Shown here: piece after piece, positions 11,274 through 26,109 of the stretch
How positions within the stretch are numbered: position 1 is the first letter of the stretch
How the letters are laid out: every line of letters begins with the position of its first letter
Program-made: the position numbers and the translations under genes
The notes under the pieces: model-generated
Database searches by the model: none
What the model saw: the letters and a program-made list of their open reading frames with translations, nothing else
Told to the model about the DNA's origin: nothing
IMG/VR virus record: IMGVR_UViG_3300027793_000258
Location: 1 to 26,109 of that record
Source of the DNA: a virus
Strand: one strand, 5' to 3'
DNA length: 26,109 nucleotides

Positions 11274-14200
11274 TGCCAATTATAGCAGGTCAGATTACAG
11301 GTTCAGCACTTAGTGGTTCGTTAAATTATACGTTCCTATCTAATATTCCTTCTGGAATAGTATCTGGAGCTGCCCAAGTAGCCGCAAATCTACCAGCAGG
11401 GACAGTATCAAGTTCTGGTCAAGTAGATTATAACTCAATAACAAATAAACTGTCTGGTGTTGTTTCTTCGTCAACGCAAATTCAACCATTATTACCTGAT
11501 GGAACAGTTAGTGCATCAAATCAAGTAGATATTACAGCAACTACCAACTACTCGACATTTAGTTCATCGTTGGCAACAGTTGATGCAGGTCAAACCACTC
11601 GTATTGATAATCTAGCAAGTTTGACCAGTTCGTATGCAATTAACGCAACTATTCAAGGCCAACTTGCTGGAGTTGCATCAAGCAGTGCACAAGTAAAAGC
11701 ATACTTACCAGCAGACACAGTATCAAGTTCTGGTCAAGTAGATATTACCGCAACTAGTGGTTATTCAACCTTTAGTTCATCAATTGCAACCAAAAACGAT
11801 ACACAAGACGTATCTATCGGTGCATTAAATGCAGCAACCAGTTCATACGCAATTAACGCAACTATTCAAGGACAACTTGCTGGTGTTGTTTCTTCTTCTA
11901 CACAAGTTAAACCATTACTTCCTGGTGGAACTGTATCAAGTTCCGCACAATATCCTGGTTGGGTCACTGCGTCATCACAAATTGATGTACGTAATACTAC
12001 AGGTATTGCAACAATTGCAACTACAGGATCAAACACATTTAATGGTACTCAAACCGTTACAGGTAGTTTATTTACTAGTGGGTCAAATAGTTTAGTAGGA
12101 AGCACTACGTTATCTGGTAGTTTAGTTGTCTCTGGTGCAGCAATTACCTCGACTCCAAATATTCAAATTTACGGAGATACAGAATTTACTGGATATGCAA
12201 AGTTTAACCCAGTCACCAGTAATATTGATACCTCAATTTCCGCATCCTACATTTATGTTAGTGGGTCAACCCAAGATTTATATTTCTCTCAAAATAGTGC
12301 TGGATATAATAACGTTACTCGTTTACGTTGGTTAGAAAGTAACCTCTACACGGGTCTATTAAAGGGTGGAATACTAACAACAACAACAGGATCTACCACG
12401 TTTAATATCAGTGCAGGTGAAGGTATTGTTGTAACTCTTAACGCATCAACAACCCAAGACCCATATCCAACAATTAAGTTGGTTCGATGGGACGCAAAAA
12501 CCAACGTTCCTATTACGTTTTCGGGTTCAGCAAAGATTACCTACGTTGGATTAGATGTTGCAGGTAATGTTATACAACAAGTTGTTCCTTGGGGTAGTAC
12601 CGACATCAATCAATTTGATACCCAAATCAATTTAGGTGTTATTTTACATTCAAGTGCATCAATATCAACAGGAGCATATAACGCTCCACAAATTTCATAT
12701 GGAGCTCCGCAAAAGGCGGACGACTTCTTTAGATCATTTGGTCCACTAAAAGTTTCTGGTCACACCTTACAAGCAAGTGGTAGTAGCCCATCACTTAGTA
12801 TTAAAAAGACCGCTGGTACATCATATCGTGAAGGGTCAAATTATGCAAATAATCCAAACCATCCCAACACGGTCACAGAAGAAAGTGATATTACAATATC
12901 TAAGATATATCGTTATTATATCTCAGGATCAACTCCTGTTATTGATACGGGTGCTAGTGGATCAGGATATCCCACTCTCGATAACCAAAACCGCGTTGAT
13001 ACAGCAACGGGGTTATTAACATCAATTGGTTTAAGTAATTGGTCTATTCAACGCGTATTCTGGGTTCCAGGGTCACCAACCAACGCGTTTATTGTCTATT
13101 ATGGTAACACCGCATACAGCACACTACTCAATGCAGTTAACGCAATTAATACGGAACCATTCACGGAAGCACCAGATACGGCAGCTAATGCTGTATTCAT
13201 CGGATACATCGTAATTCAAGGTGGTAGTAATCGTGACTTACTAAACGCGACGGATTGTACTATTATTCAAGCTGGATTGTTCCGTAACATTGCTGGTGTT
13301 GGATCGGGTGGAACACAACCAGTAGCAACCACGTTAGCAGGATTATCTGATGTCGGTATTAGTAGTCCAGCTATTGGTGACTTGTTGGTATATACTGGGG
13401 CAACGTGGAATAATACAAAGTCATTAAATGGTAGTTATTCACTTACTGGTAGTTTAGCAACAAATGATGGTATTACGGCAATAACAATTAATGCAACAGC
13501 AGTATCCGCATCACTTTCTGGTAGCGGTGCTGGAGTATTTGGCGTCAACTATAATACCTTATCAAATATTCCAGCAGGTATCGTCAGTAGTTCAACACAA
13601 GTTCAACCACTACTTCCTGGAGGAACAGTAAGTAGCTCAGCACAATATCCAGGATGGGTCACGAGTTCAGCACAAATTGATATTACCGCAACAACTGGAT
13701 ATTCTACCTTTAGTTCATCACTAGCCACCGTAGATGCTGGCCAAACCACTCGCATCGATAACTTGGCAAGTCAAACAAGTTCCTACGCAATCAACTCAAC
13801 AATACAATCGCAACTTGCTGGTGTAGTATCAAGTTCCACACAAGTTAAACCACTTCTTCCTGATGGAACTGTTTCCTCATCAGCACAATACCCAGGATGG
13901 GTCACTGCATCATCACAAATAGATTATAATAATATTACTAACAAGTTAAGTGGTGTTGTAAGTAGTTCTGCACAAGTAGTACCATTACTTCCTGGTGGGA
14001 CAGTATCAAGTTCTGGTCAAGTTAGTTTAACTGCCACCTCAGAATACTCTACATTTAGTTCATCAATTGCAACTAAAAATGATTTGCAAGATGTTTCTAT
14101 CAACGCACTGAACGCAGCAACTGGTTCATATGCAATTAACGCAACAATACAAGGACAACTTGCTGGTGTCGTATCATCGTCGGCTCAAGTTAAACCATTA

Positions 14201-15781
14201 CTTCCTGGTGGAACGGTATCATCATCTGGACAAGTAGACATCACAGCAACAACCAACTATTCAACATTTAGTTCCTCGTTGGCAACAGTTGATGCAGGAC
14301 AAACTACTCGTATTGATAATCTAGCAAGTTTGACCAGTTCGTATGCAATTAACGCAACTATTCAAGGTCAACTTGCGGGAGTAGTTTCTTCTTCAACACA
14401 AGTTAAGCCACTTCTTCCTGGTGGAACAGTTAGTGCATCAAATCAAGTTGATATCACCGCAACTACGGGATACTCTACATTTAGTTCATCACTAGCAACA
14501 GTAGATGCAGGACAAACTACTCGTATTGACAACTTGGCGAGTTTGACCAGTTCGTATGCAATCAACGCAACAATACAAGGACAACTTGCTGGTGTTGTTT
14601 CTTCTTCAACACAAGTAAAACCATTACTTCCTGGTGGTACAGTAAGTGCTTCTGGTCAAGTAGACATTACAGCAACTACTGGATACTCTACATTTAGTTC
14701 ATCACTAGCAACAGTAGATGCAGGACAAACTGCTCGTATTGATAATTTAGCAAGTCAAACAAGTTCCTACGCAATTAATGCAACTATTCAAGGGCAACTT
14801 GCTGGTGTTGTTTCTTCTTCAACACAAGTTAAGCCACTTCTTCCTGGTGGTACAGTAACCTCATCAGCACAATATCCTGGGTGGGTAACCGCATCAAGTC
14901 AAATTGACTATAATAGTATTCAAAATAAGTTAAGTGGGGTAGTATCGTCATCAACACAAATTGTTCCGCTATTACCAGCAGGAACTATTAGTGCGTCATC
15001 ACAAGTGGCATTAAATGCTATTACTGGAGTTACTTTTAGTAATTCCTCATTCTATTTCCCAAATAATTTACGAGTTGAAGGAACATTAACCGCACAAGAA
15101 ATTAATACAGAATATGTTTCTTCATCGATTATTTATGAATCTGGTTCTACCAAATTTGGTGATACAGCTGACGATGTAATGAGTGTTACTGGTTCTATTC
15201 GTGTCTTGGGTGGAAATATTAGTGGGTCGTTTATTGGATTGGTTTCTTCATCGGCACAAATAGACTATAACTCTATACAAAATAAATTATCCGGTGTTGT
15301 TTCTTCATCAACACAAGTTCAACCACTGCTTCCAGTTGGAACTGTTAGTAGTTCCGCACAATATCCAGGATGGGTAACTTCGTCAACACAAATTGTTTGG
15401 TCATCAGTAAACTACAACGGAGGTATCGTCAGTAGTTCGGCACAAGTAAAACCATTACTTCCTGATGGAACCGTATCAAGTTCAGCACAATATCCTGGTT
15501 GGGTCACCGCATCAAGTCAGGTAACAATTACTGGTATATCAGGATTGGGTGCTAACGTAGCGACATTCTTGGGAACACCAAGTTCTGCAAATTTAGCAAC
15601 AGCAGTCACAGATGAAACAGGTACGGGTGCGTTAGTATTTGCAGGAAGTCCAACATTAACTGGTACGGCTACTGCAAATAACATTGTAATGTCTGGGTCG
15701 CAATTCTCAGGAATAGTATCAGGTAGTGGATTACAATATAGATTAGTGGTTCCAGTCGGAACTAACCAATACGCAACCTAA
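11273..15781 (+). CDS. Giant repetitive tail fibre-like protein (1502 aa)
   Basis: The ATG overlaps the previous stop by one base (TAATG), with a GGAGA ribosome site at 11261-11265 inside the upstream gene. The protein lacks collagen. It has seven copies of a 71-residue repeat containing YSTFSSSLATVDAGQTTRI, NLASLTSSYAINATIQ and [17 protein letters not shown], interleaved with the ~44-residue [20 protein letters not shown] repeat shared with the neighbouring giant proteins. Embedded at about residues 295-680 is a non-repetitive, Trp/Tyr-rich module (with LRWLESNLYTGLLKGG, IKLVRWDAKTNVP, INLGVILHSSASI and WSIQRVFWVPGS), a layout typical of a larger globular fibre domain and the best candidate here for receptor contact. 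A TAQEINTEYVSSSIIYES motif is shared with the 1942-aa protein. The last ~30 residues, ending in VVPVGTNQYAT, match the end of the 1118-aa protein. It stops at TAATAA, just before a terminator. Confidence 0.83.
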   Translation: MPIIAGQITGSALSGSLNYTFLSNIPSGIVSGAAQVAANLPAGTVSSSGQVDYNSITNKLSGVVSSSTQIQPLLPDGTVSASNQVDITATTNYSTFSSSLATVDAGQTTRIDNLASLTSSYAINATIQGQLAGVASSSAQVKAYLPADTVSSSGQVDITATSGYSTFSSSIATKNDTQDVSIGALNAATSSYAINATIQGQLAGVVSSSTQVKPLLPGGTVSSSAQYPGWVTASSQIDVRNTTGIATIATTGSNTFNGTQTVTGSLFTSGSNSLVGSTTLSGSLVVSGAAITSTPNIQIYGDTEFTGYAKFNPVTSNIDTSISASYIYVSGSTQDLYFSQNSAGYNNVTRLRWLESNLYTGLLKGGILTTTTGSTTFNISAGEGIVVTLNASTTQDPYPTIKLVRWDAKTNVPITFSGSAKITYVGLDVAGNVIQQVVPWGSTDINQFDTQINLGVILHSSASISTGAYNAPQISYGAPQKADDFFRSFGPLKVSGHTLQASGSSPSLSIKKTAGTSYREGSNYANNPNHPNTVTEESDITISKIYRYYISGSTPVIDTGASGSGYPTLDNQNRVDTATGLLTSIGLSNWSIQRVFWVPGSPTNAFIVYYGNTAYSTLLNAVNAINTEPFTEAPDTAANAVFIGYIVIQGGSNRDLLNATDCTIIQAGLFRNIAGVGSGGTQPVATTLAGLSDVGISSPAIGDLLVYTGATWNNTKSLNGSYSLTGSLATNDGITAITINATAVSASLSGSGAGVFGVNYNTLSNIPAGIVSSSTQVQPLLPGGTVSSSAQYPGWVTSSAQIDITATTGYSTFSSSLATVDAGQTTRIDNLASQTSSYAINSTIQSQLAGVVSSSTQVKPLLPDGTVSSSAQYPGWVTASSQIDYNNITNKLSGVVSSSAQVVPLLPGGTVSSSGQVSLTATSEYSTFSSSIATKNDLQDVSINALNAATGSYAINATIQGQLAGVVSSSAQVKPLLPGGTVSSSGQVDITATTNYSTFSSSLATVDAGQTTRIDNLASLTSSYAINATIQGQLAGVVSSSTQVKPLLPGGTVSASNQVDITATTGYSTFSSSLATVDAGQTTRIDNLASLTSSYAINATIQGQLAGVVSSSTQVKPLLPGGTVSASGQVDITATTGYSTFSSSLATVDAGQTARIDNLASQTSSYAINATIQGQLAGVVSSSTQVKPLLPGGTVTSSAQYPGWVTASSQIDYNSIQNKLSGVVSSSTQIVPLLPAGTISASSQVALNAITGVTFSNSSFYFPNNLRVEGTLTAQEINTEYVSSSIIYESGSTKFGDTADDVMSVTGSIRVLGGNISGSFIGLVSSSAQIDYNSIQNKLSGVVSSSTQVQPLLPVGTVSSSAQYPGWVTSSTQIVWSSVNYNGGIVSSSAQVKPLLPDGTVSSSAQYPGWVTASSQVTITGISGLGANVATFLGTPSSANLATAVTDETGTGALVFAGSPTLTGTATANNIVMSGSQFSGIVSGSGLQYRLVVPVGTNQYAT
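11525..11950 (+). repeat. First block of 71-residue (213-bp) repeats, two copies
   Basis: Copies begin at 11525 and 11738. Each encodes V-D-I-T-A-T, then YSTFSSS, a variable helical segment (VDAGQTTRIDNLASL or KNDTQDVSIGALNAA), SSYAINATIQGQLAG and SSS.QVK..LP..TVSSS. The period is exactly 213 bp. Confidence 0.9.
14021..14872 (+). repeat. Second block of 71-residue (213-bp) repeats, four tandem copies
   Basis: Copies start at 14021, 14234, 14447 and 14660. The last three are very alike at the DNA level; for instance the stretch around AGGACAAACT recurs at exact 213-base steps. The first copy carries the alternative KNDLQDVSINALNAAT segment. A lone further copy lies at 13676-13888. The near-identity of the last three suggests recent amplification by recombination or slippage. 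Confidence 0.92.
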
Positions 15782-15894: not shown

Positions 15895-18800
15895 ATGAGT
15901 TTATTAAAAGTCAATAATATCGAACTTGCTACATCTGGTAGTACTAACGTTACATTTAATGACGACGTTACATTCGGTGCCGCAGTTAATATTTCTTCAG
16001 GATCTATCACAGCAAGTTTCGCTATTGCAAACGCATCTATCGAAAAAGAAAAACTAACAAATGACGCCAGAGACTTCGTAAATATTCTTAATAAACCAGC
16101 AGGTCTTATCAGTAGTTCTGGTCAGTTCGTTAGTGCAATTTCTGGTTCCTCTTTAGAACTTGGTGGTATATTAGCAACGGGTAGTATTAGAACAACGAGT
16201 GTATTTAGTGGTAGTGGTGCACAACTATTTGGAATTCCAAACGCAGCATTAAATAATAGTTCTATTACAATCAACGGTGGTGCAGTTTCACTCGGTGGAA
16301 CTAGAACGCTTACCACAAGTGATATTACAGAAGGAACAAATCAATATTATACTGACGCACGTGTAAAATCAAAATTAGATAGTGAAACCGTAGTCAGTAG
16401 TTCTGGTCAAATTAATTATCAAGCTGTAACGGGGCAACCTACAGTTAATACGTTTGGTGGAGATGGTAATCAATCGTTTACTATTGTAAATGGTATTTTT
16501 ATTAGTGCATCTGGTGGTGCAGATGGTATTATTGTCACAAACGATTCAGGTAACCAACTATTACGTTTTAGAACTGTTGGTGGAACAGTTTCGTCCTCCG
16601 CACAAGTAACAGCAGCATTACCTGCTGGTGTAGTATCAAGTTCAACACAAGTTCAACCATTACTTCCTGGTGGAACAGTTAGTGCATCGGCACAATACCC
16701 AGGATGGGTGACCGCATCAAGTCAAATTGATTATAACTCAATTACAAACAAATTAAGTGGTGTTGTTTCTACATCAGCACAAGTTCAACCATTATTACCA
16801 GCAGATACAGTTTCCGCATCAGCACAAGTTAAAGCATTTTTACCAGATGGAACAGTAAGTGCATCGGCACAATATCCTGGATGGATTACTTCATCTACAC
16901 AAGTAGTTCAATCATTACCTGGTGGAACTGTATCGGCATCGGCACAATACCCAGGATGGGTTACCGCATCATCACAAATAATTGTACAAAACACTACTGG
17001 TATTGGAGCTATAGCAACCACTGGATCAAATACCTTTATTGGTAATCAAATTATCTCAGGTTCTACAACAATTACTGGTGACTTAACAGTACAAGGAACC
17101 TCGTCTGTTACGTATGTTACCTCGTCGCAACTTAACGTAGGATCAAATACCATTACACTAAATACTACCGATGTACTTCGTTACGGTGGGTTAACAGTAT
17201 TTGATTCTGCTTCTGCTGGACAATCTGGTTCACTTCTCTGGGACAGTGTAAATAATGTATGGTTATATGTCCACGCAGGAACCAGTAATACCAGTAGTAT
17301 ATTGATTACAGGTCCGGAAAATACTGGTGCGTTGGGTAGTGAACAGTTCTTAACACCTAATTTATTACCAAAGGCTGGACTAACTGGTGACCACATTGTA
17401 AATTCACAAATTAGTGATAACGGAACACAAGTGGGTATCGTTGGTGGGCTAAAAGTTACAGGATCCATCACATCGTCTCATATAGTTCCCGCAGTTACTG
17501 ATACCTTTGATTTAGGTTCACCAACCTTAAAGTTTAGAGACTTGTATCTTTCTGGTTCAACGTTATATCTTGGCTCATTAGCAATTAGAGATAATGGTGG
17601 TGCGTTATCTATTGGACCATCTGGGTCAGCAATTGGAACCAATTCACCTGTATCGGGTGCATTTACAGGATCATTCCAAGGTAACGGTAGTCAATTAACT
17701 AATATCGCAAATGCAGCACTTCCTGGTGGTATAATTTCATCATCAACACAACTACCAGCAGGTACAGTATCCGCATCGTCACAATATCCTGGATGGGTCA
17801 CCGCATCAAGTCAAATTGACTACAACTCAATCACCAATAAACTTTCTGGTGTTTTTAGCAGTTCAACACAAATTGCAAATAATTTACCAGCAGGTACAGT
17901 ATCAAGTTCTGGTCAAATTAATGCAGGTGCAACAGCAAACTTTGCAACTGCAGTAGCAGCACAACTTGGTACAGTACACTCTGGTAGTTTTATGAGTACC
18001 GCAACTACTAATAACTTACCAGAAGGTGTCACTAATCTTTACTACACGGATGCACGAGTAAAAACCAAGATGAGTGGTGATGTTGTTCATTCTGGTAGTT
18101 TCCTTGGTACCGCAACCACTGATAATTTAACACAAGGATCAACTAACAAGTATTACGCAAATTCCTTAGTATTAAGTTATATTGACTCACTTTCAGTTCT
18201 CAGTAGTTCACAACAAGTTGTCAATAGATTACCAATTGGAACAGTATCAAGTTCAAATCAAATTTCAAACGTATTAGTTACTAGTGCAAGTTACGCAGCA
18301 ACTGCAAGTTTAGCACTTGGGGTATCTGGGTCACTTGCGGTCAGTACTGATGGATTAAATGAAGGTAGCATAAATCTTTATTACACAGATGCACGAGTTA
18401 AGACCAAGTTAAATGCAGAAAATGTACATTCGGCAAGTTTCTTAGGAACGGCAACCACTACCAACTTAACAGAAGGTATTAACTTATATTTTACCAATCA
18501 ACGTGCGAAGGATGCACTTCCTGGGGTAGTATCATCGTCAGCACAAGTACCAACACTTCTTCCTGGCGGAACGGTATCATCATCAGCACAATATCCTGGT
18601 TGGGTCACCGCATCAAGTCAAATTGACTATAACTCAATACAAAATAAATTATCTGGTGTTATATCTTCTTCTACGCAAGTCAAACCATTACTTCCTGATG
18701 GAACCGTCACATCATCAGCACAATATCCAGGATGGGTCACTAGTTCAACACAAGTTGTCTGGTCATCGGTTAACTACAACGCGGGTATCGTCAGTAGTTC

Positions 18801-19251
18801 TGGTCAAGTTCAACCACTATTACCTGGTGGAACAGTATCATCATCAGCACAATATCCTGGTTGGGTAACAAGTTCTGGTCAAATTGATTACAACTCAATT
18901 ACTAATAAATTAAGTGGAGTTGTTTCATCATCCGCACAGACAGTTGCATTAATTGCATCACAAGATATCGCACCGGCAACAGTAAATGCAACAACGATAA
19001 ACGCATCTATCGTAACAGCATCAAACTTAACTGCAAATCAAGCAGTATTTACAAATGGTAGTGATGGATTGGTCAGTAATGCAATTACCGGAACTGGTAA
19101 TGTGGTAATGAGTGCAAGTCCAACGTTAACAGGAACATTTACGGCAGATAAATCAATTATGTCTGGTTCACAATTCTCGGGAATAGTATCAGGTAGTGGA
19201 TTAGAGTATAGATTGGTGGTTCCTGTTGGAACTAATCAATACGCAACTTAA
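15895..19251 (+). CDS. Repetitive tail fibre-like protein (1118 aa)
   Basis: A third giant beta-rich virion protein. The N-terminus (MSLLKVNNIELATSGSTNV) is distinct from the other two. It contains several copies of a phage-fibre motif around NLYYTDARVKTKL (residues ~151, ~717 and ~829; a variant NLYFTNQRAKDAL follows), and the [20 protein letters not shown] repeat in many variants. Near residue 403 is the module SVTYVTSSQLNVGSNTITLN followed by GSLLWDSVNNVWLYVHAG. Near residue 537 is FDLGSPTLKFRDLYLSGS, which is also found in the 1942-aa protein. The final ~30 residues, ending VVPVGTNQYAT, match the 1502-aa protein. The ribosome site is weak (GAG at 15886-15888), and the gene ends with tandem stops TAATAA. 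Shared modules suggest the three giants are paralogues or exchange parts; a role in host attachment is inferred. Confidence 0.82.
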   Translation: MSLLKVNNIELATSGSTNVTFNDDVTFGAAVNISSGSITASFAIANASIEKEKLTNDARDFVNILNKPAGLISSSGQFVSAISGSSLELGGILATGSIRTTSVFSGSGAQLFGIPNAALNNSSITINGGAVSLGGTRTLTTSDITEGTNQYYTDARVKSKLDSETVVSSSGQINYQAVTGQPTVNTFGGDGNQSFTIVNGIFISASGGADGIIVTNDSGNQLLRFRTVGGTVSSSAQVTAALPAGVVSSSTQVQPLLPGGTVSASAQYPGWVTASSQIDYNSITNKLSGVVSTSAQVQPLLPADTVSASAQVKAFLPDGTVSASAQYPGWITSSTQVVQSLPGGTVSASAQYPGWVTASSQIIVQNTTGIGAIATTGSNTFIGNQIISGSTTITGDLTVQGTSSVTYVTSSQLNVGSNTITLNTTDVLRYGGLTVFDSASAGQSGSLLWDSVNNVWLYVHAGTSNTSSILITGPENTGALGSEQFLTPNLLPKAGLTGDHIVNSQISDNGTQVGIVGGLKVTGSITSSHIVPAVTDTFDLGSPTLKFRDLYLSGSTLYLGSLAIRDNGGALSIGPSGSAIGTNSPVSGAFTGSFQGNGSQLTNIANAALPGGIISSSTQLPAGTVSASSQYPGWVTASSQIDYNSITNKLSGVFSSSTQIANNLPAGTVSSSGQINAGATANFATAVAAQLGTVHSGSFMSTATTNNLPEGVTNLYYTDARVKTKMSGDVVHSGSFLGTATTDNLTQGSTNKYYANSLVLSYIDSLSVLSSSQQVVNRLPIGTVSSSNQISNVLVTSASYAATASLALGVSGSLAVSTDGLNEGSINLYYTDARVKTKLNAENVHSASFLGTATTTNLTEGINLYFTNQRAKDALPGVVSSSAQVPTLLPGGTVSSSAQYPGWVTASSQIDYNSIQNKLSGVISSSTQVKPLLPDGTVTSSAQYPGWVTSSTQVVWSSVNYNAGIVSSSGQVQPLLPGGTVSSSAQYPGWVTSSGQIDYNSITNKLSGVVSSSAQTVALIASQDIAPATVNATTINASIVTASNLTANQAVFTNGSDGLVSNAITGTGNVVMSASPTLTGTFTADKSIMSGSQFSGIVSGSGLEYRLVVPVGTNQYAT

Positions 19252-20128: not shown

Positions 20129-20794
20129 ATGAGCGTACAAATGTTTCGTGAGTTACAAGAACTAATTGATACGGCACAACATATAGTTATCGCTGTTATT
20201 GTGGCCGAGGGGTGTGAAAATTACAAGGGTAAATTCTTGACTGATTTGGAAAATCAAATCAAGGGTCAACAGAACCCAGTACATTTACACACCATTTGTT
20301 ATCGTGAAGAACCAATTATGTTTCCACGCCCAATGACACAAGCGGTGTATTATTTCGCACCAAAAAATTATACACCACTTTTTTATCGTCAAGGTGCAAG
20401 AGCGATGGACGCACCAATAGATATTGTAACGGCCATCAAAATGAGGCAGGGGATGTCCTATGCAGAGGCTGCATACGGTGCGGATAAGATGGAAAGTTAC
20501 GAACGAACAGAAAATTTGGTAAAGAACGAAGATACATCAAAGTTTCCTTCATTGTTTCAACAAGCACGTAATTTTGCAAAAGAAATGTGGCACGCAGGTA
20601 AAAATGCAGCAGTTGGATTACCTGTATTAGTAGATGCGGATATTGCATACAATAGATTTGAAACGTGTCGTGGTTGTGAATTTTTAACACAAGATAGTTT
20701 TCGTTGTGAAAAATGTGGGTGTTTTATGAAAACAAAAACACAAATTGCAACTTCTTCATGTCCAATTGGAAAATGGCACGCTATAACGCAGTAA
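20129..20794 (+). CDS. Putative thioredoxin-like / zinc-ribbon protein, function unknown
   Basis: A 221-residue protein unlike its low-complexity neighbours. The C-terminus has six cysteines at 180, 183, 193, 196, 198 and 211 in the pattern CxxC...CxxCxC...K...CPxGKW. I know this arrangement as a recurring zinc-binding tail in proteins of uncultured phages. The N-terminal part might be a divergent thioredoxin-like fold: a hydrophobic strand HIVIAVIVAEGC, a helix, a second strand VHLHTICY, then a Pro-containing turn before TQAVYYFAP and PLFYRQGA. The usual CxxC redox pair is absent there; only one Cys (in AEGCEN) sits at about the right place. The middle (~105-165) is helical and charged. It follows the 284-aa gene by four bases, with an AGAGGA ribosome site (20115-20120). 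It may act in assembly or modification of fibre proteins; this is speculation. Confidence 0.6.
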   Translation: MSVQMFRELQELIDTAQHIVIAVIVAEGCENYKGKFLTDLENQIKGQQNPVHLHTICYREEPIMFPRPMTQAVYYFAPKNYTPLFYRQGARAMDAPIDIVTAIKMRQGMSYAEAAYGADKMESYERTENLVKNEDTSKFPSLFQQARNFAKEMWHAGKNAAVGLPVLVDADIAYNRFETCRGCEFLTQDSFRCEKCGCFMKTKTQIATSSCPIGKWHAITQ

Positions 20795-20839: not shown

Positions 20840-21571
20840 ATGTTAAGATTTTTTCCGTATAGAACATTTAGTTCGTCATTTGCATTCACGGGGTCCGCAG
20901 CACAAACTGCATCATTCGTGCTGTCTGGAACCACCGCATCGTTTTCACTAACTGGTGGTGGTCCAACTGGTCCTGTTGGGCAAACGTCGGTAGTACAAGG
21001 TATTACAGGTGTATCAGGACCAACAGGTATAGGTCCAACAGGTCCACGTGGCACCACAGGTCCAACAGGCCCAAGATCAGCAACAGGTCCAACAGGACCA
21101 ACTGGTATTACAGGACCAACTGGCGCTACAGGAGCAACTGGAGCTGCATCAACTGGTCCAACAGGACCAATAGGAGTTTCAGGTAGTACAGGTCCAACAG
21201 GACCAACAGGTGCAACAGGTATTATCGGTATCACAGGTGCAACTGGTCCGACAGGAGCAACAGGTCCAAGTGGTCCAACAGGTATTCAAGGTATTGCAGG
21301 GCCGCAAGGTGTTACTGGTGCTACGGGTCCAACTGGTGCAATTGGTGTCGCAGTATCAGGTATCCAAGGTCCAACAGGTGTAACAGGGCCGTCAGGTCCA
21401 TTTGGTTCTTCTGGTCCACAAGGTACAATTGGTGTTACAGGTCCAACAGGACCAACAGGTGCACAAGGAACCGCATTTACAGGGCCAACAGGTGCAACAG
21501 GTGCAACTGGTGCTACGGGTCCAACAGGAGCTGTGGGAGCTACTGGTCCAACTGGTGCGAACACACCATAA
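20840..21571 (+). CDS. Collagen-like virion protein (243 aa)
   Basis: Residues 1-40 are a leader with [13 protein letters not shown], and residues 41-~240 are an almost continuous Gly-X-Y tract, mostly G-P-T, G-A-T and G-V-T. There is no globular C-terminal domain; the protein ends GPTGANTP. Phage and bacterial collagen-like tracts are known to form triple helices, and in some proteins such as Bacillus BclA the Thr of G-P-T is glycosylated; whether that happens here is unknown. The start is supported by the leader, which matches those of the genes at 21587 ([15 protein letters not shown]) and 24040 ([13 protein letters not shown]). There is no visible ribosome site. It contains no Cys and no His repeat, making it the simplest member of the cluster. 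Probably a stalk-like appendage or a partner that co-trimerises with the neighbouring collagen proteins. Confidence 0.78.
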
Positions 21572-21586: not shown

Positions 21587-23230
21587 ATGACGTTTAAATT
21601 TTTTCCGTTCGGTGTACCAACTACTAGTTCGTTTGCAATAGGAGTCGGAGTAACAGCTACCGCATCTATTGCAATTAATAGTGGTTCTGCGTTCTCTACG
21701 GCGTCATACGCACTGGGTGGGTCCACGGGTGCCACAGGTCCAAGTGGTCCGCAAGGAGCAACAGGTCCAACAGGTCCAACGGGTCCAACAGGCATTTCTG
21801 GATCAACTGGTGTTTTGGGTACTTCTGGTTCAACAGGACCACAAACGTCAGGGTCAACAGGTCCGACTGGACCAAGTGGTATTACTGGAGCAACAGGTCC
21901 AACAGGACCAACTGGTATTACGGGTTCTACGGGTGTAATAGGTATTACAGGACCATCTGGTATTCGTGGTGCAACAGGTGCAACTGGAGCAACAGGTCCA
22001 ACAGGCCCAACAGGTAGTGTTGGTATAACTGCTGGTATCATAGGTGTATCAGGTGTTACAGGCCCAACTGGTTCATCTGGTCCAACTGGTGTACAAGGAA
22101 GCACGGGTCCAACTGGTGTGGGGCCAACTGGAGCAACAGGTGCAACGGGTCCATCTGGTTCAGCAGGACCAACAGGACCAGTGGGACCAACAGGAGCAAC
22201 TGGTGCAATCGGACCATCTGGATCTTCTGGTCCAAATACATTCGGAATAGTTGGTATAACTGGAGCAACTGGTCCTACTGGTGTTATCGGACCAACGGGA
22301 CCACAAGGAAACGCTGGTCGAGCTGTATTTTTCATAACAGGATCATGTAATCAAACACATTCCGATATCACCGTTCCTCACAGTGACGTTGCAGCAAGTC
22401 ATACTGATATCGCAGCAGCACACACAGATACTACCATTAATGCATCACATAGTGACATTGTTACCACAACACCAGCATCACATACAGATAATACTACACC
22501 ATTCGTAAATACGACTATTAACGCATCACATAGTGACACAACAATTAATGCATCACATAGTGATATTGCGCATAGTAATATTACAATTAACGCCGCACAT
22601 ACTGATAATACCACACCATTTAATAATATCGCATTTACTAATATTGCAAAATCACATACGGATATTTCACACAGCAATATATCACATACGAATATCGGAG
22701 CAGCACATACAGATAATACTACACCATTTAATAATATCGCGTTTAGTAATATTGCATTCACAAATACCACTATACCATTTAGTAACATAGGATTTAGTAA
22801 TTCGTATACTCCACATTCAAACATTGCTAAAGGTGCAGTTCATAAAGACGATTACGGTCCACCAGCACATACAAATAGTACAACACCACATAGTAATATT
22901 GCATTCTCAAACACAGGATTCTCTAACTCGTATACTCCACATACAAACGTGGGTCATACGGATATTGCGTTCTCTAATACAGGATTTAGTAATAGTTATA
23001 CTCCACATACTAATATTGGTTCAGCTCACACCAACACTACAATCAACGCATCACACACAGATAATTACACGGCACATCAAAACGTAGCGCATGGAGATAT
23101 ACCGTTCGTGAATAGTTATACACCGGCACAATGTTCGCAATGTCCTGGTGGAGATCCGTCTGAATGTGATTCGTTCTGTGAATGTTATCCAAACTGTGGT
23201 TGCTTCGGTAATACGTGCATCGGTATATAA
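21587..23230 (+). CDS. Modular appendage protein: leader, collagen, HTD repeats, Cys-rich tail (547 aa)
   Basis: Four parts can be read off. Residues 1-44 are the [13 protein letters not shown] leader shared with two neighbours. Residues 45-244 are a collagen-like Gly-X-Y tract. Residues 258-515 are 38 consecutive HTD units ([HF]-x-[DN] anchors spaced 5, 7, 9 or 11 residues apart), for example [10 protein letters not shown] and HTNIGAA. Residues 516-547 are a Cys-rich tail with eight cysteines ending [11 protein letters not shown] ninth Cys (254) sits in the linker just before the repeats. No function is known to me for the HTD repeat. The order rod, shaft, knob suggests an extended virion fibre with a disulfide- or metal-stabilised tip. 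A moderate purine-rich ribosome site (GAGAGAAAG) precedes the start, 15 bases after the previous stop. Confidence 0.78.
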
Positions 23231-23234
23231 TAAA

Positions 23235-23242
23235 TGTTTATA
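23235..23242 (+). promoter_or_regulatory. Possible promoter-like octamer TGTTTATA
   Basis: A one-base variant of the recurrent octamer in the 26-base gap before the HTD-only gene, 14 bases from its ATG. It is the weakest of the seven copies. Confidence 0.3.
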
Positions 23243-23256
23243 ATAGGGAATAAATA

Positions 23257-24033
23257 ATGCCAGGTCCAACACATACAAATATAGGCCACTCCGATATAGC
23301 GTTTGAGAATGTCTACGCTGCGCATACTGATTTTACACAAAATCCGGCACACACTGACAATACCACACCATTTAATAATATTGCAGCAGCTCATACCAAT
23401 ATCGCTCATAGTAATCAGGCATTTCTTAATACTTCATTTAGTAATATAGCAAAATCACACACCAATGTATCACATACAAATATTGGGCATACAGACGGTA
23501 CGGCAGCACATACAGACAACTATTCACCAGCATCGCATTTAGATAATACTAGTGCACACTCAAATATCGCAGCAGCTCATACAAATATTGCACATAGTAA
23601 TATAGCAACATCACACACAGATATATCTCACTCAAATATATCTCATACTAACATCGGTGCATCACACACTGACAATACCACACCATTTAACAATATTGCG
23701 TTTAGTAATATTGGGTTCGTAAACACCACTATTCCACATACTAATATTGGTCACACTAATATAGGTGCAGCGCATTCAGATAATACAACACCAGCAGATC
23801 ACAGCGATATCGCATTTAGTAATATTACGATTAACGCAAGTCACACGGATATTACAATCAACGCAAGTCACACGGATATTGCAGCATCACATACCGATAC
23901 TACCATTAACGCATCACACACGAATATAGTAAGTACCACTCCAGCTTCACATACCGACAGTACAACACCATTTACAAATAGTACTACACCACACTCAAAT
24001 GTTGCGGCCGCTCACAGTAACGCATTCCTATAA
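23257..24033 (+). CDS. Protein consisting only of HTD repeats (258 aa)
   Basis: After five residues (MPGPT) the whole protein is 38 HTD units up to the last residue, with no leader, collagen or Cys. Anchor spacing is 5, 7, 9 or 11 throughout, and position 3 is always Asp or Asn. Shared blocks such as [12 protein letters not shown] and [16 protein letters not shown] also occur in the 547-aa protein upstream, and [12 protein letters not shown] also in the 368-aa protein downstream, so the repeats have been exchanged or duplicated among the three genes. The composition (Asn, Thr, His, Ser, Asp, Ala, Ile) is soluble and not membrane-like. A weak AGGGA site (23245-23249) precedes the ATG. Since it contains only the repeat, it shows that the repeat can stand alone as a protein; it may form a filament or pair with the repeat shafts of the other two proteins. 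Function unknown. Confidence 0.75.
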   Translation: MPGPTHTNIGHSDIAFENVYAAHTDFTQNPAHTDNTTPFNNIAAAHTNIAHSNQAFLNTSFSNIAKSHTNVSHTNIGHTDGTAAHTDNYSPASHLDNTSAHSNIAAAHTNIAHSNIATSHTDISHSNISHTNIGASHTDNTTPFNNIAFSNIGFVNTTIPHTNIGHTNIGAAHSDNTTPADHSDIAFSNITINASHTDITINASHTDIAASHTDTTINASHTNIVSTTPASHTDSTTPFTNSTTPHSNVAAAHSNAFL

Positions 24034-24039
24034 TACACT

Positions 24040-24903
24040 ATGTCGCAATTTTTTCCACTAGGTACACCAACAACTGCAAGTACAGCACTTATCAGTAGTT
24101 TAGCATTTACCGCAACGTATGCTGTGAATGTGAATGTGTTGACAGCATCATATGGTCCTGGACCAACTGGACCACAAGGTGATAAAGGACCAACAGGACC
24201 ACAAGGTGCAACTGGATTGGCAGGGTCAGGTTCTACAGGACCAACGGGCGCAACAGGTCCAACTGGGCTAACTAGTTCAGGTCCAACAGGTCCAACAGGA
24301 CCGCAAGGTGTAATCGGTATTACTGGTATTACAGGCCCAACAGGTGTCACAGGTTCTACAGGCCCAACAGGTCCAATAGGAATTACTGGTGTAATTGGTG
24401 TTACAGGTATTTCTGGTGTAACTGGTATTGCTTCATTTACTTCGGGTTCCACAGGCGCTACTGGGCCAACTGGAGCAACAGGTGCTACTGGTGTGGTGGG
24501 TATTACTGGTGCAACTGGTATTATTGGAATCACAGGACCAACAGGATTGACTAATTTGGTGGGCATTACAGGTCCAACAGGTCCAATAGGATTACCAACC
24601 ACGGGTTCTACAGGTCCAAGTGGTCCACAAGGAGCAACTGGTGTTGTAGGTACTGGTGGTGTTTCTGCAGGAGCGGCGGCATCTGGAGTCATCGGTATTA
24701 CGGGTATTACTGGTGTACAAGGTACCACAGGACCGCAAGGAAGTCGTGGTGTGGACGCCGAATGTCCAGCAGGATTTGTAACCTGTACGGAAGGGGCTCC
24801 GTCATCGGGGTCAAATACATATACAAACCCAAATAGTAGTATATATTCTGTGGTTTGTGCCGCAAGACCAGTAGGTTGTTTAGGAACATTTACGTGTGTA
24901 TAA
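24040..24903 (+). CDS. Collagen-like virion protein with Cys-containing tail (287 aa)
   Basis: Residues 1-40 contain the leader [13 protein letters not shown] and a beta-like stretch; 41 to ~238 are a Gly-X-Y tract richer in G-I-T and G-V-T than the other collagen genes, with an interruption near IASFTSGS. Residues 240-287 form a short non-collagen tail with five cysteines (242, 249, 273, 280 and 286) ending GCLGTFTCV. The tail differs in sequence from the eight-Cys tail of the 547-aa protein but holds the same position at the end of a collagen-type fibre, as expected of a small knob. The gene starts six bases after the previous stop with no ribosome site, so re-initiation by coupled translation is likely. 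Probably a second fibre type that shares its docking leader with the proteins at 20840 and 21587. Confidence 0.78.
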
Positions 24904-24935
24904 CGTTATTTTATAAGTAAAGGTATGGAAAATAC

Positions 24936-24953
24936 TACTTATATAGAGGTAGA
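24936..24953 (+). promoter_or_regulatory. Promoter-like element TACTTATATAGAGGTAGA before the last full gene
   Basis: The same 18 bases as at 5051-5068. The core TACTTATA lies 32 bases before the ATG at 24976. Its reverse complement TATAAGTA occurs at 24912-24919, giving an 8-bp inverted repeat with a 16-base spacer that might be a hairpin or paired binding sites. Confidence 0.6.
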
Positions 24954-24975
24954 CGTTATGTGGAGAGTTTAATAT

Positions 24976-26082
24976 ATGGCTAAAGCACCTGGTAGTATTT
25001 GGGTAGATGGTGAAACCTTTAGATTTATTGACGCAACTGGAAACGAGTACTATTACACTGGTACTGCGGGGTCTAGTCCTGCGGGAGCTAAGGCTGGTTC
25101 AATTTGGGTAGACGGAAATGATTTTCATTATATTTCTGCTACTGGTGTTGACCGTACAATTGCATACACCGATTTGGGTGTAGCAGCGGGATCAAAACCA
25201 GGTTCAGTATGGGTGCAAACCACATTCTGGCAATGGATATCATCGGCAGGAAACGCTCGTCGTGGTCACACCGACGTAACAGCAGCACACACCGACAATA
25301 CCACCCCAGCATCTCACACAGATATTGCATTCGTTAATACTACAATTAACGCGGCACACACAGATACTACAATCAACGCAAGCCATACAGATATAGCAAA
25401 AGCACACACGGATAACACAACACCAAATAGTCACACGGACAACACTACTCCGTTCAATAATATTGCGTTCGTTAATACTACAATCAATGCCGCTCACACG
25501 GATAATACAACGAACGCAAGCCATACAGATATAGCAAAAGCACACACGGATAACACAACACCAAATAGTCATACTAACAGCTATACTCCACATAGTAATG
25601 TCGCACACACCAATATTGGTGCAGCGCACACGGACAACACTACTCCGTTTAATAATATCGCATTCACTAACACCTATATTGGTAACAGTCACACCAACAG
25701 TTATACTCCACACAGTAATGTCGCACACACCAATATTGGTGCAGCGCACACGGACAACACTACTCCGTTTAATAATATAGCATTTACCAATTCATATACA
25801 GGTAATAATCACACTAACAATTACACACCACACACCAATATCGGTCACAGTAATATCGGTCATACTAATATCGGATTTAGTAACATAGCATTTAGTAATA
25901 TTGGATTTACCAATACAACTATCAATGCATCACACACAAATATCAGTCATAGTAATATTGGTGTATCGCATACAAATATCGGTCATAGTAATGTTGGATT
26001 TAGTAATTCGTATACAGGATTTGTAAATTCTTACACACCACAAAATCACACAAATTCGTATCAGGGTGGTCCTTCAGCCTAA
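24976..26082 (+). CDS. Modular HTD-repeat protein with triple N-terminal GSIWVDG domain (368 aa)
   Basis: Residues 1-97 hold three copies of a motif at exactly 35-residue spacing: GSIWVDGETFRFIDATG (from residue 6), GSIWVDGNDFHYISATG (41) and GSVWVQTTFWQWISSAG (76). The WVDG.. F..I.A.G pattern looks like a small beta-hairpin repeat as found in fibre-docking or carbohydrate-contact segments, but I cannot name the family. From residue 98 to the end there are 39 HTD units (271 residues), the final one ending GGPSA. Compared with the 547-aa protein, the collagen N-terminus has been replaced by the WVDG domain, and there is no Cys tail. A good GGAGAG ribosome site (24962-24967) and the promoter-like element upstream support the start. 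Two sets of exact DNA repeats (59 and 65 bp) lie in the shaft. Likely another appendage using the same shaft on a different base. Confidence 0.76.
   Translation: MAKAPGSIWVDGETFRFIDATGNEYYYTGTAGSSPAGAKAGSIWVDGNDFHYISATGVDRTIAYTDLGVAAGSKPGSVWVQTTFWQWISSAGNARRGHTDVTAAHTDNTTPASHTDIAFVNTTINAAHTDTTINASHTDIAKAHTDNTTPNSHTDNTTPFNNIAFVNTTINAAHTDNTTNASHTDIAKAHTDNTTPNSHTNSYTPHSNVAHTNIGAAHTDNTTPFNNIAFTNTYIGNSHTNSYTPHSNVAHTNIGAAHTDNTTPFNNIAFTNSYTGNNHTNNYTPHTNIGHSNIGHTNIGFSNIAFSNIGFTNTTINASHTNISHSNIGVSHTNIGHSNVGFSNSYTGFVNSYTPQNHTNSYQGGPSA
25375..25571 (+). repeat. Exact 59-bp direct repeat in the HTD shaft
   Basis: Bases 25375-25433 and 25513-25571 are identical over 59 bp, an offset of 138 bp (46 codons). 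They encode part of an INAS unit and the run HTDIAKA and HTDNTTPNS. Confidence 0.9.
25594..25778 (+). repeat. Exact 65-bp direct repeat in the HTD shaft, period 120 bp
   Basis: Bases 25594-25658 and 25714-25778 are identical over 65 bp, an offset of 120 bp (40 codons). The repeat encodes [19 protein letters not shown] and FNNI. Identity without synonymous change points to recent duplication. Confidence 0.9.
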
Positions 26083-26102: not shown

Positions 26103-26109
26103 ATGAATC
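26103..26109 (+). CDS. Start of a further gene (cut off by window edge)
   Basis: An ATG at 26103 preceded by AAGGAA (26091-26096) at suitable spacing suggests the next gene begins here. Only two complete codons are visible, so nothing can be said about the product. Confidence 0.35.

What the first reader, a model, noticed from the sequence alone, without database searches (positions are those of the whole stretch)
22358..26082. HTD repeat: a three-protein repeat family whose anchor spacing is always odd (5, 7, 9 or 11 residues)
I split the repeat regions of three proteins (genes at 21587, 23257 and 24976) at every [HF]-x-[DN] anchor and measured all intervals. All 115 units fit: position 1 is always His or Phe, position 3 always Asp or Asn, and the distance to the next anchor is only 5, 7, 9 or 11. 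Even spacings never occur, although indels of single codons would be expected in a disordered low-complexity tract. Growth in two-residue steps suggests a beta-structured solenoid or trimeric shaft in which insertions must preserve side-chain alternation. The pattern is not the classic pentapeptide repeat (A[DN]Lxx) and not a collagen. Known precedent for His in phage fibres is the HxH iron-binding motif of the T4 gp37 tip; the layout here is different. I do not know a described family with this grammar.
Basis: partly seen in the sequence, partly recalled or inferred. Interest (0 to 1): 0.88.

Follow-up and report, generated by a model that had tools for sequence, protein, structure and literature searches.

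The report
Phage fibre repeats for radical-SAM modification
Three neighbouring phage tail-fibre-like proteins are built from over a hundred copies of a tiny His/Phe-x-Asp/Asn motif, and in close relatives a radical enzyme encoded just downstream probably cross-links each copy, a fibre chemistry we did not find described.

Summary
The repeat is real: 115 [HF]-x-[DN] anchors in three genes, 112 internal intervals, all 5, 7, 9 or 11. Odd spacing holds in the nearest phages (7 even of 664) but not in the family: 16% even in the sister clade, 35-47% elsewhere. What is conserved everywhere is the tripeptide.

Just beyond the window's end, in relatives with identical gene B, come a fourth array gene and a radical-SAM/SPASM enzyme. 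Its homologues in Thermus phages and many bacteria sit beside H-x-D arrays (35 of 66 bacterial, 13 of 15 viral loci) or small peptides ending in one H-x-D (16 more bacterial loci). A DUF483-like partner is present in 65 of 66 and 13 of 15. Sixty-three control loci have none of these.

In alignments anchor His is replaced almost only by Phe, and Asp only by Asn. That suits aromatic/C-beta (i, i+2) crosslinking of the three-residue-cyclophane type better than metal binding. I infer polycyclised fibres. That the arrays are the enzyme's substrate is strongly supported; the chemistry is not shown. A 2024 paper noted the Thermus module and proposed DNA modification.

The parts
21587..23230 (+). gene A: collagen-like N half, then H/F-x-D/N array, then Cys-rich tail (547 aa)
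   Evidence: ORF; Pfam Collagen 83.6 bits; anchors
22358..23113 (+). array of gene A: 38 anchors, aa 258-509
23129..23227 (+). Cys-rich C-terminal tail of gene A (aa 515-547)
   Evidence: translation; similar tails end array genes in L003 (5311-5970) and L004 (5233-5970)
23257..24033 (+). gene B: almost entirely array, 38 anchors (aa 6-255), no recognisable leader domain
   Evidence: best PHROG match only E 0.35
24976..26082 (+). gene C: GSxWV triple module followed by the array
24976..25266 (+). N-terminal triple 'GSIWVDG' module of gene C (aa 1-97), shared with array genes next to radical-SAM genes in distant phages
   Evidence: BLASTP of gene C module: L040 1e-46, Cumys_13 2e-17, L054 2e-15, L049 8e-14
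25267..26055 (+). array of gene C: 39 anchors, aa 98-360
26103..26109 (+). first 7 bases of a fourth array gene (gene D), cut by the end of the record
   Evidence: window sequence and the complete gene in L001/L002/L019; the radical-SAM gene follows it there, outside this window

Best explanation
The [HF]-x-[DN] tripeptide is the modification site of a phage-encoded radical-SAM/SPASM peptide maturase whose gene follows the array genes (just beyond the end of this record). The array proteins are fibre-like virion proteins. I infer that the enzyme, with a DUF483-like partner, works along them and forms a covalent bond inside each tripeptide, between the aromatic ring of residue 1 (imidazole of His, phenyl of Phe) and C-beta of residue 3 (Asp/Asn), as three-residue-cyclophane enzymes do. 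An otherwise unstructured, Thr/Ser/Asn-rich chain would become a rigid, protease-resistant rod studded with small rings. Shown: the tripeptide arrays, the radical-SAM and DUF483-like neighbours in relatives, their strong co-occurrence across phages and bacteria, and the aromatic/acid-amide substitution pattern. Inferred: that the arrays are the substrate (about 0.9), that the product is an i,i+2 ring-to-C-beta crosslink (about 0.6 to 0.65), that the array proteins are virion fibres, and that stiffening the fibre is the purpose (about 0.5).
For: (1) In 9 of 9 contigs found with gene B or gene D homologues a radical-SAM ORF follows the last array gene. (2) That enzyme has CX3CX2C and the full SPASM pattern CX14GX4C...CX2CX5CX3C...C, invariant in 11 of 11 and 23 of 23 aligned homologues; its model resembles anSME (Z 29.2) and ChlB (28.5), and its sub-cut-off NCBIfam matches include DynA, YhhB, AmcB, GrrM/OscB, XyeB and FxsB. 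(3) Thermus phages phiLo (52% identity), Cumys and phiMa (45%) have the same enzyme and H-x-D arrays; in Cumys/phiMa the array gene is directly upstream. (4) Family-wide: an ORF with at least 8 H-x-[DN] per 100 aa within the fetched flanks (up to 8-10 kb) in 35 of 66 bacterial and 13 of 15 viral member loci, against 0 of 14 and 0 of 49 non-member loci. A stricter non-overlap filter gave 25 of 66 and 11 of 15 against 0 of 63 (Fisher 1.8e-11). (5) 16 further bacterial loci (Bradyrhizobium, Sphingomonas, Marinicella and others) have 59-107-aa peptides with a C-terminal H-x-D; the one cluster whose neighbours I scanned (L223) holds a curated RiPP C-methyltransferase, TIGR03975, 607 bits against a cut-off of 282. 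(6) DUF483-like partner in 65 of 66 and 13 of 15 members, 0 of 63 controls; the model was built from 8 proteins, 3 of them from these 66 loci. (7) Reverse test from H-x-D: 22 of 80 loci had an array-like ORF; 15 have long G-x-y runs in another frame (collagen-like genes read out of frame); of the other 7, five lie beside this enzyme family, one (L131) beside a weak match of another family, one (L086) beside none. (8) Between related proteins anchor His aligns to H 1422, F 126, Y 2 and others 4; D/N aligns only to D/N, 1548 of 1548. (9) PMC11002830 (passages read): known i,i+2 crosslinks Phe-Asn (OscB, XncB), His-Ala (HaaB), His-Arg (YhhB), Tyr-Asp (YxdB).
Against: The radical-SAM gene is not in the window itself but in relatives with identical gene B. 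No NCBIfam model reaches its curated cut-off, and the closest solved enzyme is a sulfatase maturase, not a crosslinker. In the passages I read no 3-CyFE is recorded as joining His to Asp. Array-level similarity to phiLo is weak (tblastn E 0.2), so that link rests on the enzyme and the motif. Fifteen of 66 bacterial members had neither a dense array nor a terminal-H-x-D peptide; most show small H-x-D clusters, but L209 and L241 showed no target I could call and L217 starts at a contig edge. Window proteins have no recognisable leader peptide. The 1548 of 1548 figure partly restates that array His and Phe are nearly always anchors, and the aligned sequences are not independent. No mass-spectrometry data exist here.
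Confidence: 0.65

Rival explanations
1. The radical-SAM enzyme does modify H-x-D, but by other chemistry (epimerisation, hydroxylation, C-methylation, a C-N bond from imidazole, or Asp side-chain remodelling), perhaps completed by the methyltransferase-like domain fused to DUF483 in this clade.
For: The gene association fits any peptide modification. The DUF483 gene of L019 (DUF483 27.0 bits, cut-off 25) has weak sub-cut-off methyltransferase matches. The Bradyrhizobium cluster L223 adds YydG-epimerase-like and C-methyltransferase genes. DynA, the maturase of dynobactin, is among the best sub-cut-off matches.
Against: The need for an aromatic at position 1 and Asp/Asn at position 3, with Phe tolerated, is the published motif type of i,i+2 crosslinkers; single-residue chemistry would not obviously need both positions.
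Confidence: 0.25
2. The H-x-D residues bind metal ions, in the manner of the HxH iron sites of T4 gp37, and the radical-SAM gene has another job.
For: His and Asp are common metal ligands; HxH iron sites are known in phage fibres (PMC11705849, passages read).
Against: 34 of 115 anchors are Phe-x-Asn, where Phe cannot ligate metal; in alignments His is replaced by Phe, not by Cys, Asp or Glu. No H-x-H: every array His has D/N at +2. It does not explain the radical-SAM and DUF483 association.
Confidence: 0.05
3. Unmodified beta-structured trimeric shaft or solenoid in which even-length loops between three-residue strands force odd spacing.
For: Zero even intervals of 112 here and 7 of 664 in the near clade; gene A is fused to a collagen-like, presumably trimeric, half; weak pentapeptide matches.
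Against: Even spacing is frequent in the rest of the family. AF2 monomer of gene B pLDDT 38.6 with no strands. Not exclusive with crosslinking.
Confidence: 0.07
4. The radical-SAM/DUF483 module modifies phage DNA, as proposed for Thermus phages Cumys and phiMa (PMC11437467), and array genes are neighbours only because both are late genes.
For: Published suggestion based on cyanobacterial loci beside deazapurine genes (passage read).
Against: Array or terminal-H-x-D peptide in 51 of 66 bacterial and 13 of 15 viral loci against 0 of 63 controls, including a RiPP cluster; the top eight structural matches are a sulfatase maturase and peptide-modifying enzymes by title; in several phages the enzyme itself carries H-x-D tails.
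Confidence: 0.03

Closest known systems
Triceptides and three-residue-cyclophane-forming radical-SAM enzymes (XncB, OscB/GrrM, FxsB, YhhB, HaaB, YxdB)
   Same: SPASM radical-SAM enzyme next to a substrate rich in aromatic-x-(N/D) tripeptides; His, Phe and Tyr at position 1 and Asn/Asp at position 3 are each documented (PMC11002830, passages read)
   Different: Substrate is a large fibre-like phage protein set with over 100 sites and no leader-core layout; the enzyme reaches no curated family cut-off; His-Asp pairing not reported in the passages read; extra DUF483-like partner
His-Xaa-Ser (Hxs) system, HxsA repeat protein with HxsB/HxsC
   Same: His-x-residue motif protein with radical-SAM maturases (mentioned in PMC9062424, passages read; details recalled)
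   Different: Third residue is Ser there, Asp/Asn here; HxsB model only 35.7 bits against a cut-off of 370 for the phiLo enzyme
'rSAM module' of Thermus phages Cumys and phiMa (Kolesnik et al. 2024, PMC11437467)
   Same: The same three-gene module: 'unknown' protein, radical-SAM, DUF483
   Different: In the passages read the third protein is of unknown function and DNA modification is suggested; 'HxD' and 'histidine' occur 0 times in the main text. Here that protein is recognised as an array gene with 61 aromatic-x-D/N anchors
T4 gp37 HxH iron-binding needle
   Same: Histidine-rich motifs in a phage fibre
   Different: H-x-H against H/F-x-D/N; Phe at 34 of 115 anchors
Pentapeptide repeat proteins
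   Same: The 5-residue units resemble x-N-I-x-x; weak sub-cut-off Pfam hits
   Different: Only 42 of 112 intervals are 5 residues long; scores below the gathering cut-off

Membership tests
Three-residue-cyclophane (triceptide) radical-SAM system | radical-SAM CX3CX2C and SPASM cysteines in the maturase | tested here: met
   Invariant in 11 of 11 and 23 of 23 aligned enzymes of relatives; the gene is outside this window
Three-residue-cyclophane (triceptide) radical-SAM system | substrate with aromatic-x-X3 tripeptides next to the maturase | tested here: met
   115 [HF]-x-[DN] in the window; H-x-D is the top i,i+2 pair in all seven groups tested (z 10 to 46)
Three-residue-cyclophane (triceptide) radical-SAM system | score above the curated cut-off of a cyclophane-forming maturase family | tested here: not met
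   L019 enzyme: YhhB 65 of 445, AmcB 58 of 425, GrrM 48 of 310, FxsB 45 of 370, XyeB 38 of 450 bits; all 23 A3 members match these models, best E 4e-23
Three-residue-cyclophane (triceptide) radical-SAM system | C(sp2)-C(beta) crosslink in the product | not testable with these tools
   needs MS and NMR
RiPP precursor | short precursor with leader and C-terminal core | tested here: not met
   Window proteins are 258-547 aa with long arrays; met in outline only by bacterial relatives with 59-107-aa peptides ending in H-x-D
Pentapeptide repeat (PF00805/PF01469/PF13599) | gathering score and 5-residue period | tested here: not met
   18.7 of 38 and 20.1 of 26.4 bits; intervals 5, 7, 9, 11
HxH iron-binding fibre | His-x-His repeats | tested here: not met
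   every array His is followed at +2 by D/N
His-Xaa-Ser system | Ser at position 3 and HxsB/HxsC-level scores | tested here: not met
   position 3 is D/N; TIGR03978 35.7 of 370 bits for the phiLo enzyme, not among the listed best 25 for L019
Collagen-like fibre (PF01391) | G-x-y triplets above gathering score | tested here: met
   gene A N-half 83.6 bits against 27.2; no collagen match for genes B and C

The most novel reading that the evidence does not exclude
Tailed phages encode hypermodified polycyclophane fibres: virion proteins carrying well over one hundred enzyme-installed His-Asp, His-Asn and Phe-Asn carbon crosslinks per gene set (115 sites in three window genes, plus 44 in gene D of a relative), made by a dedicated phage radical-SAM/DUF483 module shared with bacterial RiPP-like clusters. 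It would be a new class of structural biopolymer and, to my knowledge, by far the most heavily crosslinked substrate of this enzyme type.
Probability: 0.5. Interest if true: 0.95.

Novelty: new variant of a known kind. Interest (0 to 1): 0.85.

Why it matters
Radical-SAM peptide maturases are known mainly from small natural products. A family that acts on long structural proteins of virions would extend the chemistry to fibres and suggest why such unstructured repeats persist. It gives a testable function to the unexplained 'rSAM module' of cultivable Thermus phages (host T. thermophilus HB8), so the question can be settled by mass spectrometry of one virion protein. It may also supply enzymes with a natural taste for His/Phe-x-Asp/Asn that tolerate long, leaderless substrates.

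Tried and rejected
PDB sequence search with gene B gave one hit, polygalacturonase 1bhe, E 0.093, which I take as chance. tblastn of gene B against annotated phages gave only phiLo at E 0.2.

Odd-parity grammar as a family rule: rejected. Indels between related proteins were 165 even and 138 odd in length, which does not single out two-residue steps, though gains and losses of whole units confuse that count.

Bacterial scan with a gene-D homologue (L005) found no relative. A first DNA pattern returned four contigs already known. L131 has a (HSD)8 run beside MoaA-like enzymes of another family.

Choices made before counts: the threshold of 8 H-x-[DN] per 100 aa was chosen by me after seeing arrays. 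The non-overlap version lost real arrays because longer spurious ORFs in GC-rich genomes displaced them, so both counts are given. 'Member' means a nearly full-length match at 35% identity or more; the remaining hits are 22-35% identical, mostly over partial lengths. For one search I left out L180, L189, L191 and L212 as near-duplicates, counted only the longest anchor cluster of each ORF, and admitted Y and W as first residue. A looser test for short ORFs ending in H-x-D was uninformative: 41 of 66 members but also 6 of 14 and 13 of 49 controls, hence the tighter form. That form found 15; L224 is counted by me as the 16th because its homologous peptide ends HIDIPI. Some outputs were cut, so not every neighbour of every locus was seen. 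Three-residue-cyclophane enzymes do not appear by name among the fold matches, which says nothing either way.

Literature: listings; passages read in PMC11705849, PMC11002830, PMC9062424, PMC11437467 and PMC13060819 (its one HxD is a metal site of another enzyme). Apart from PMC11437467 on the module itself, no listing pointed to H-x-D arrays with this enzyme; most subscription journals are not held.
Full report
OBSERVATION. The window is a 26109-base viral record with contractile-tail genes (tail sheath, Pfam 50 bits and PHROG 254 bits), long fibre-like genes and several collagen-like genes. At its 3' end three genes carry the reported repeat. Recounting gave 115 [HF]-x-[DN] anchors in three arrays and 112 internal intervals, all 5, 7, 9 or 11. 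All H and F inside the arrays are anchors except one F in gene B. The 112 linkers comprise 50 distinct words, all of even length (2, 4, 6 or 8 residues), so the rule is not just many copies of one unit. Phe is always paired with Asn, His with either (Fisher 1.4e-8).

HOW FAR THE SPACING RULE GOES. Eight viral contigs with relatives of gene B carry several array genes each, and a further array gene D lies just beyond the window's end in relatives; its first 7 bases are in the window. In this clade (five contigs) 7 of 664 intervals are even. In the sister clade (L040, L041, L043) 44 of 273 are even, in L049/L051/L137 25 of 59, in Thermus phages 96 of 273, in other viral loci 183 of 484, in bacterial loci 300 of 632 (longest anchor cluster per ORF, Y and W also admitted as first residue, four near-duplicate bacterial loci left out). 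The parity is therefore a feature of this lineage's stock of linker words, not of the family. The tripeptide is conserved: H-x-D is the most enriched i,i+2 pair in all seven groups (z 10 to 46).

THE NEIGHBOUR. After gene D comes an ORF of about 437 aa with a radical-SAM domain (Pfam 58.3 bits, cut-off 29.5), in 9 of 9 contigs found. Four larger records searched whole (148, 105, 54 and 49 kb) have one radical-SAM match each at E 0.001. Aligned homologues keep CX3CX2C and the SPASM pattern CX14GX4C - CX2CX5CX3C - C. The predicted structure (pLDDT 83.8) resembles the sulfatase maturase anSME (Z 29.2, 329 residues, rmsd 3.0), ChlB (28.5) and a thioether-forming maturase (24.4). No NCBIfam cut-off is reached by the L019 or phiLo enzyme; the best sub-threshold models are anSME, DynA and several cyclophane-forming maturases.

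FAMILY-WIDE ASSOCIATION. The closest enzymes in annotated phages are those of Thermus phages phiLo, Cumys and phiMa (52% over 400 aa for phiLo); the next hit falls to 22%. All three have H-x-D arrays: phiLo genes 135-137, and Cumys_13 and phiMa_29 immediately upstream of the enzyme, with 61-62 aromatic-x-D/N anchors in about 343 residues. By sequence the arrays themselves are hardly alignable (tblastn of gene B to phiLo E 0.2). The N-terminal GSxWV module of window gene C is homologous to that of Cumys_13, L040, L049 and L054 array genes (E 1e-46 to 8e-14 against gene C). An alignment-based scan found 66 nearly full-length members in bacterial genomes and 15 in viral contigs, with 14 and 49 non-member hits as controls. 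Arrays (at least 8 H-x-[DN] per 100 aa) lie near 35 of 66 and 13 of 15 members, and near 0 of 63 controls (six viral controls reach 5-7); the two viral misses have under 1.4 kb upstream of the enzyme. Sixteen further bacterial loci have 59-107-aa peptides ending in H-x-D, such as -TIHIDIL, -VVHIDF, -IIHIDV. Of the remaining 15, most show smaller H-x-D clusters; L209 and L241 showed none that I could call, and L217 starts at a contig edge. In the one Bradyrhizobium locus whose neighbours I scanned (L223) they include a RiPP radical-SAM C-methyltransferase well over its curated cut-off (607 against 282 bits) and a YydG-like epimerase (93.7 against 300, below cut-off). A DUF483-like gene accompanies 65 of 66 and 13 of 15 members and 0 of 63 controls, by a model of 8 proteins of which 3 come from these loci.

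REVERSE TEST. Of 22 with an ORF of 8 or more H-x-D, 15 have G-x-y runs of 24-267 aa in another frame and are probably collagen-like genes read out of frame. Of the other seven, L089, L107, L115, L127 and L137 lie beside this enzyme (36-53% identity), L131 beside a different radical-SAM pair (29% over 120 aa), L086 beside none; L075 had the enzyme but no array over the threshold.

MECHANISM. In pairwise alignments of related array proteins, anchor His aligns to His 1422 times, Phe 126, Tyr 2, anything else 4; the third position, where position 1 stays H/F, aligns only to Asp or Asn, 1548 of 1548 (sequences are related and the aligner favours matching anchors, so these are not independent events). 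A metal site would be expected to tolerate Cys, Asp or Glu and not Phe. An i,i+2 bond between an aromatic ring and C-beta needs an aromatic and a residue with an activatable C-beta. A review passage lists Phe-Asn, His-Ala, His-Arg, Tyr-Asp and Trp-Asn/Asp crosslinks made by such enzymes (PMC11002830, passages read). Hence the best reading is enzymatic cyclisation of each tripeptide. What is shown is the association and the motif; substrate status and chemistry are inferred. The unmodified monomer is predicted to be unstructured, which fits a chain that gains stiffness from the modification but does not prove it.

KNOWN OR NEW. Kolesnik et al. 2024 (PMC11437467; passages read) described the Cumys/phiMa module as radical-SAM, DUF483 and a protein of unknown function, and suggested DNA modification. 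The present data identify the third protein as an H-x-D array gene and point to protein modification instead. My literature searches (listings) showed no paper that describes this. The nearest known kinds are triceptides and, by analogy, the His-Xaa-Ser system (details recalled). The window's proteins are not RiPP precursors in the usual sense, and the enzyme does not pass any curated cyclophane-family cut-off, so I call it a new variant of a known kind rather than a member.

Noticed in passing
window 11273-15781 and 15895-19251 (C-termini); L034, L041, L049, L051, L137, L056: Fibre-like genes upstream of the array genes in several phages end in a conserved tail, e.g. YRLVVPVGTNQYAT here and WVVLPVGTDRWAP in Thermus phage Cumys. 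Possibly a shared assembly or attachment signal.
   Followed up: partly
L019:5971-6873, L040:2680-5289, L049:5956-6558, L056:10952-11992, L089:1900-3489: An array gene before the enzyme often ends in a conserved H-x-D-Q-P-(V)-like tail across distant phages. Could be a recognition or terminal anchor signal.
   Followed up: partly
L019:6942-8258 C-terminus; L019:8280-8675; L031:1726-3174: The radical-SAM enzyme itself carries C-terminal HADHTD-like tails in the window clade and H-x-D tails in Thermus phages, and a small ORF after it carries HADHVD. Self-modification or substrate mimicry is possible.
   Followed up: partly
L001, L002 and window gene C: Gene C differs in length between contigs with identical gene B (357, 397 and 368 aa), a sign of rapid array turnover.
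   Followed up: no
L223:6679-12567 and related Bradyrhizobium/Sphingomonas loci: An RiPP-like cluster: peptide ending in HIDIL, YydG-epimerase-like gene, RiPP C-methyltransferase, H-x-D radical-SAM, DUF483-methyltransferase-like gene; I found no family model for the peptide.
   Followed up: partly
L131:3-2968: Cys-rich repeat protein with a (HSD)8 run near its end, followed by two MoaA-like radical-SAM genes of another family.
   Followed up: no
L054:10001-16748: A 156-kb viral contig with two paralogous radical-SAM genes near an H-x-N array gene; two adjacent related genes between them include the one I used in the DUF483-like model.
   Followed up: no
window 20840-21571, 21587-22321, 24040-24903: Three collagen-like stretches interleaved with the array genes; the collagen fusion of gene A suggests that its array is displayed as a trimer.
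   Followed up: no
window 20129-20794: Small protein with a Cys-rich C-terminus (DUF6171, 28.2 bits against a cut-off of 27) just upstream of the collagen and array genes; a similar protein sits in the same place in L041.
   Followed up: no
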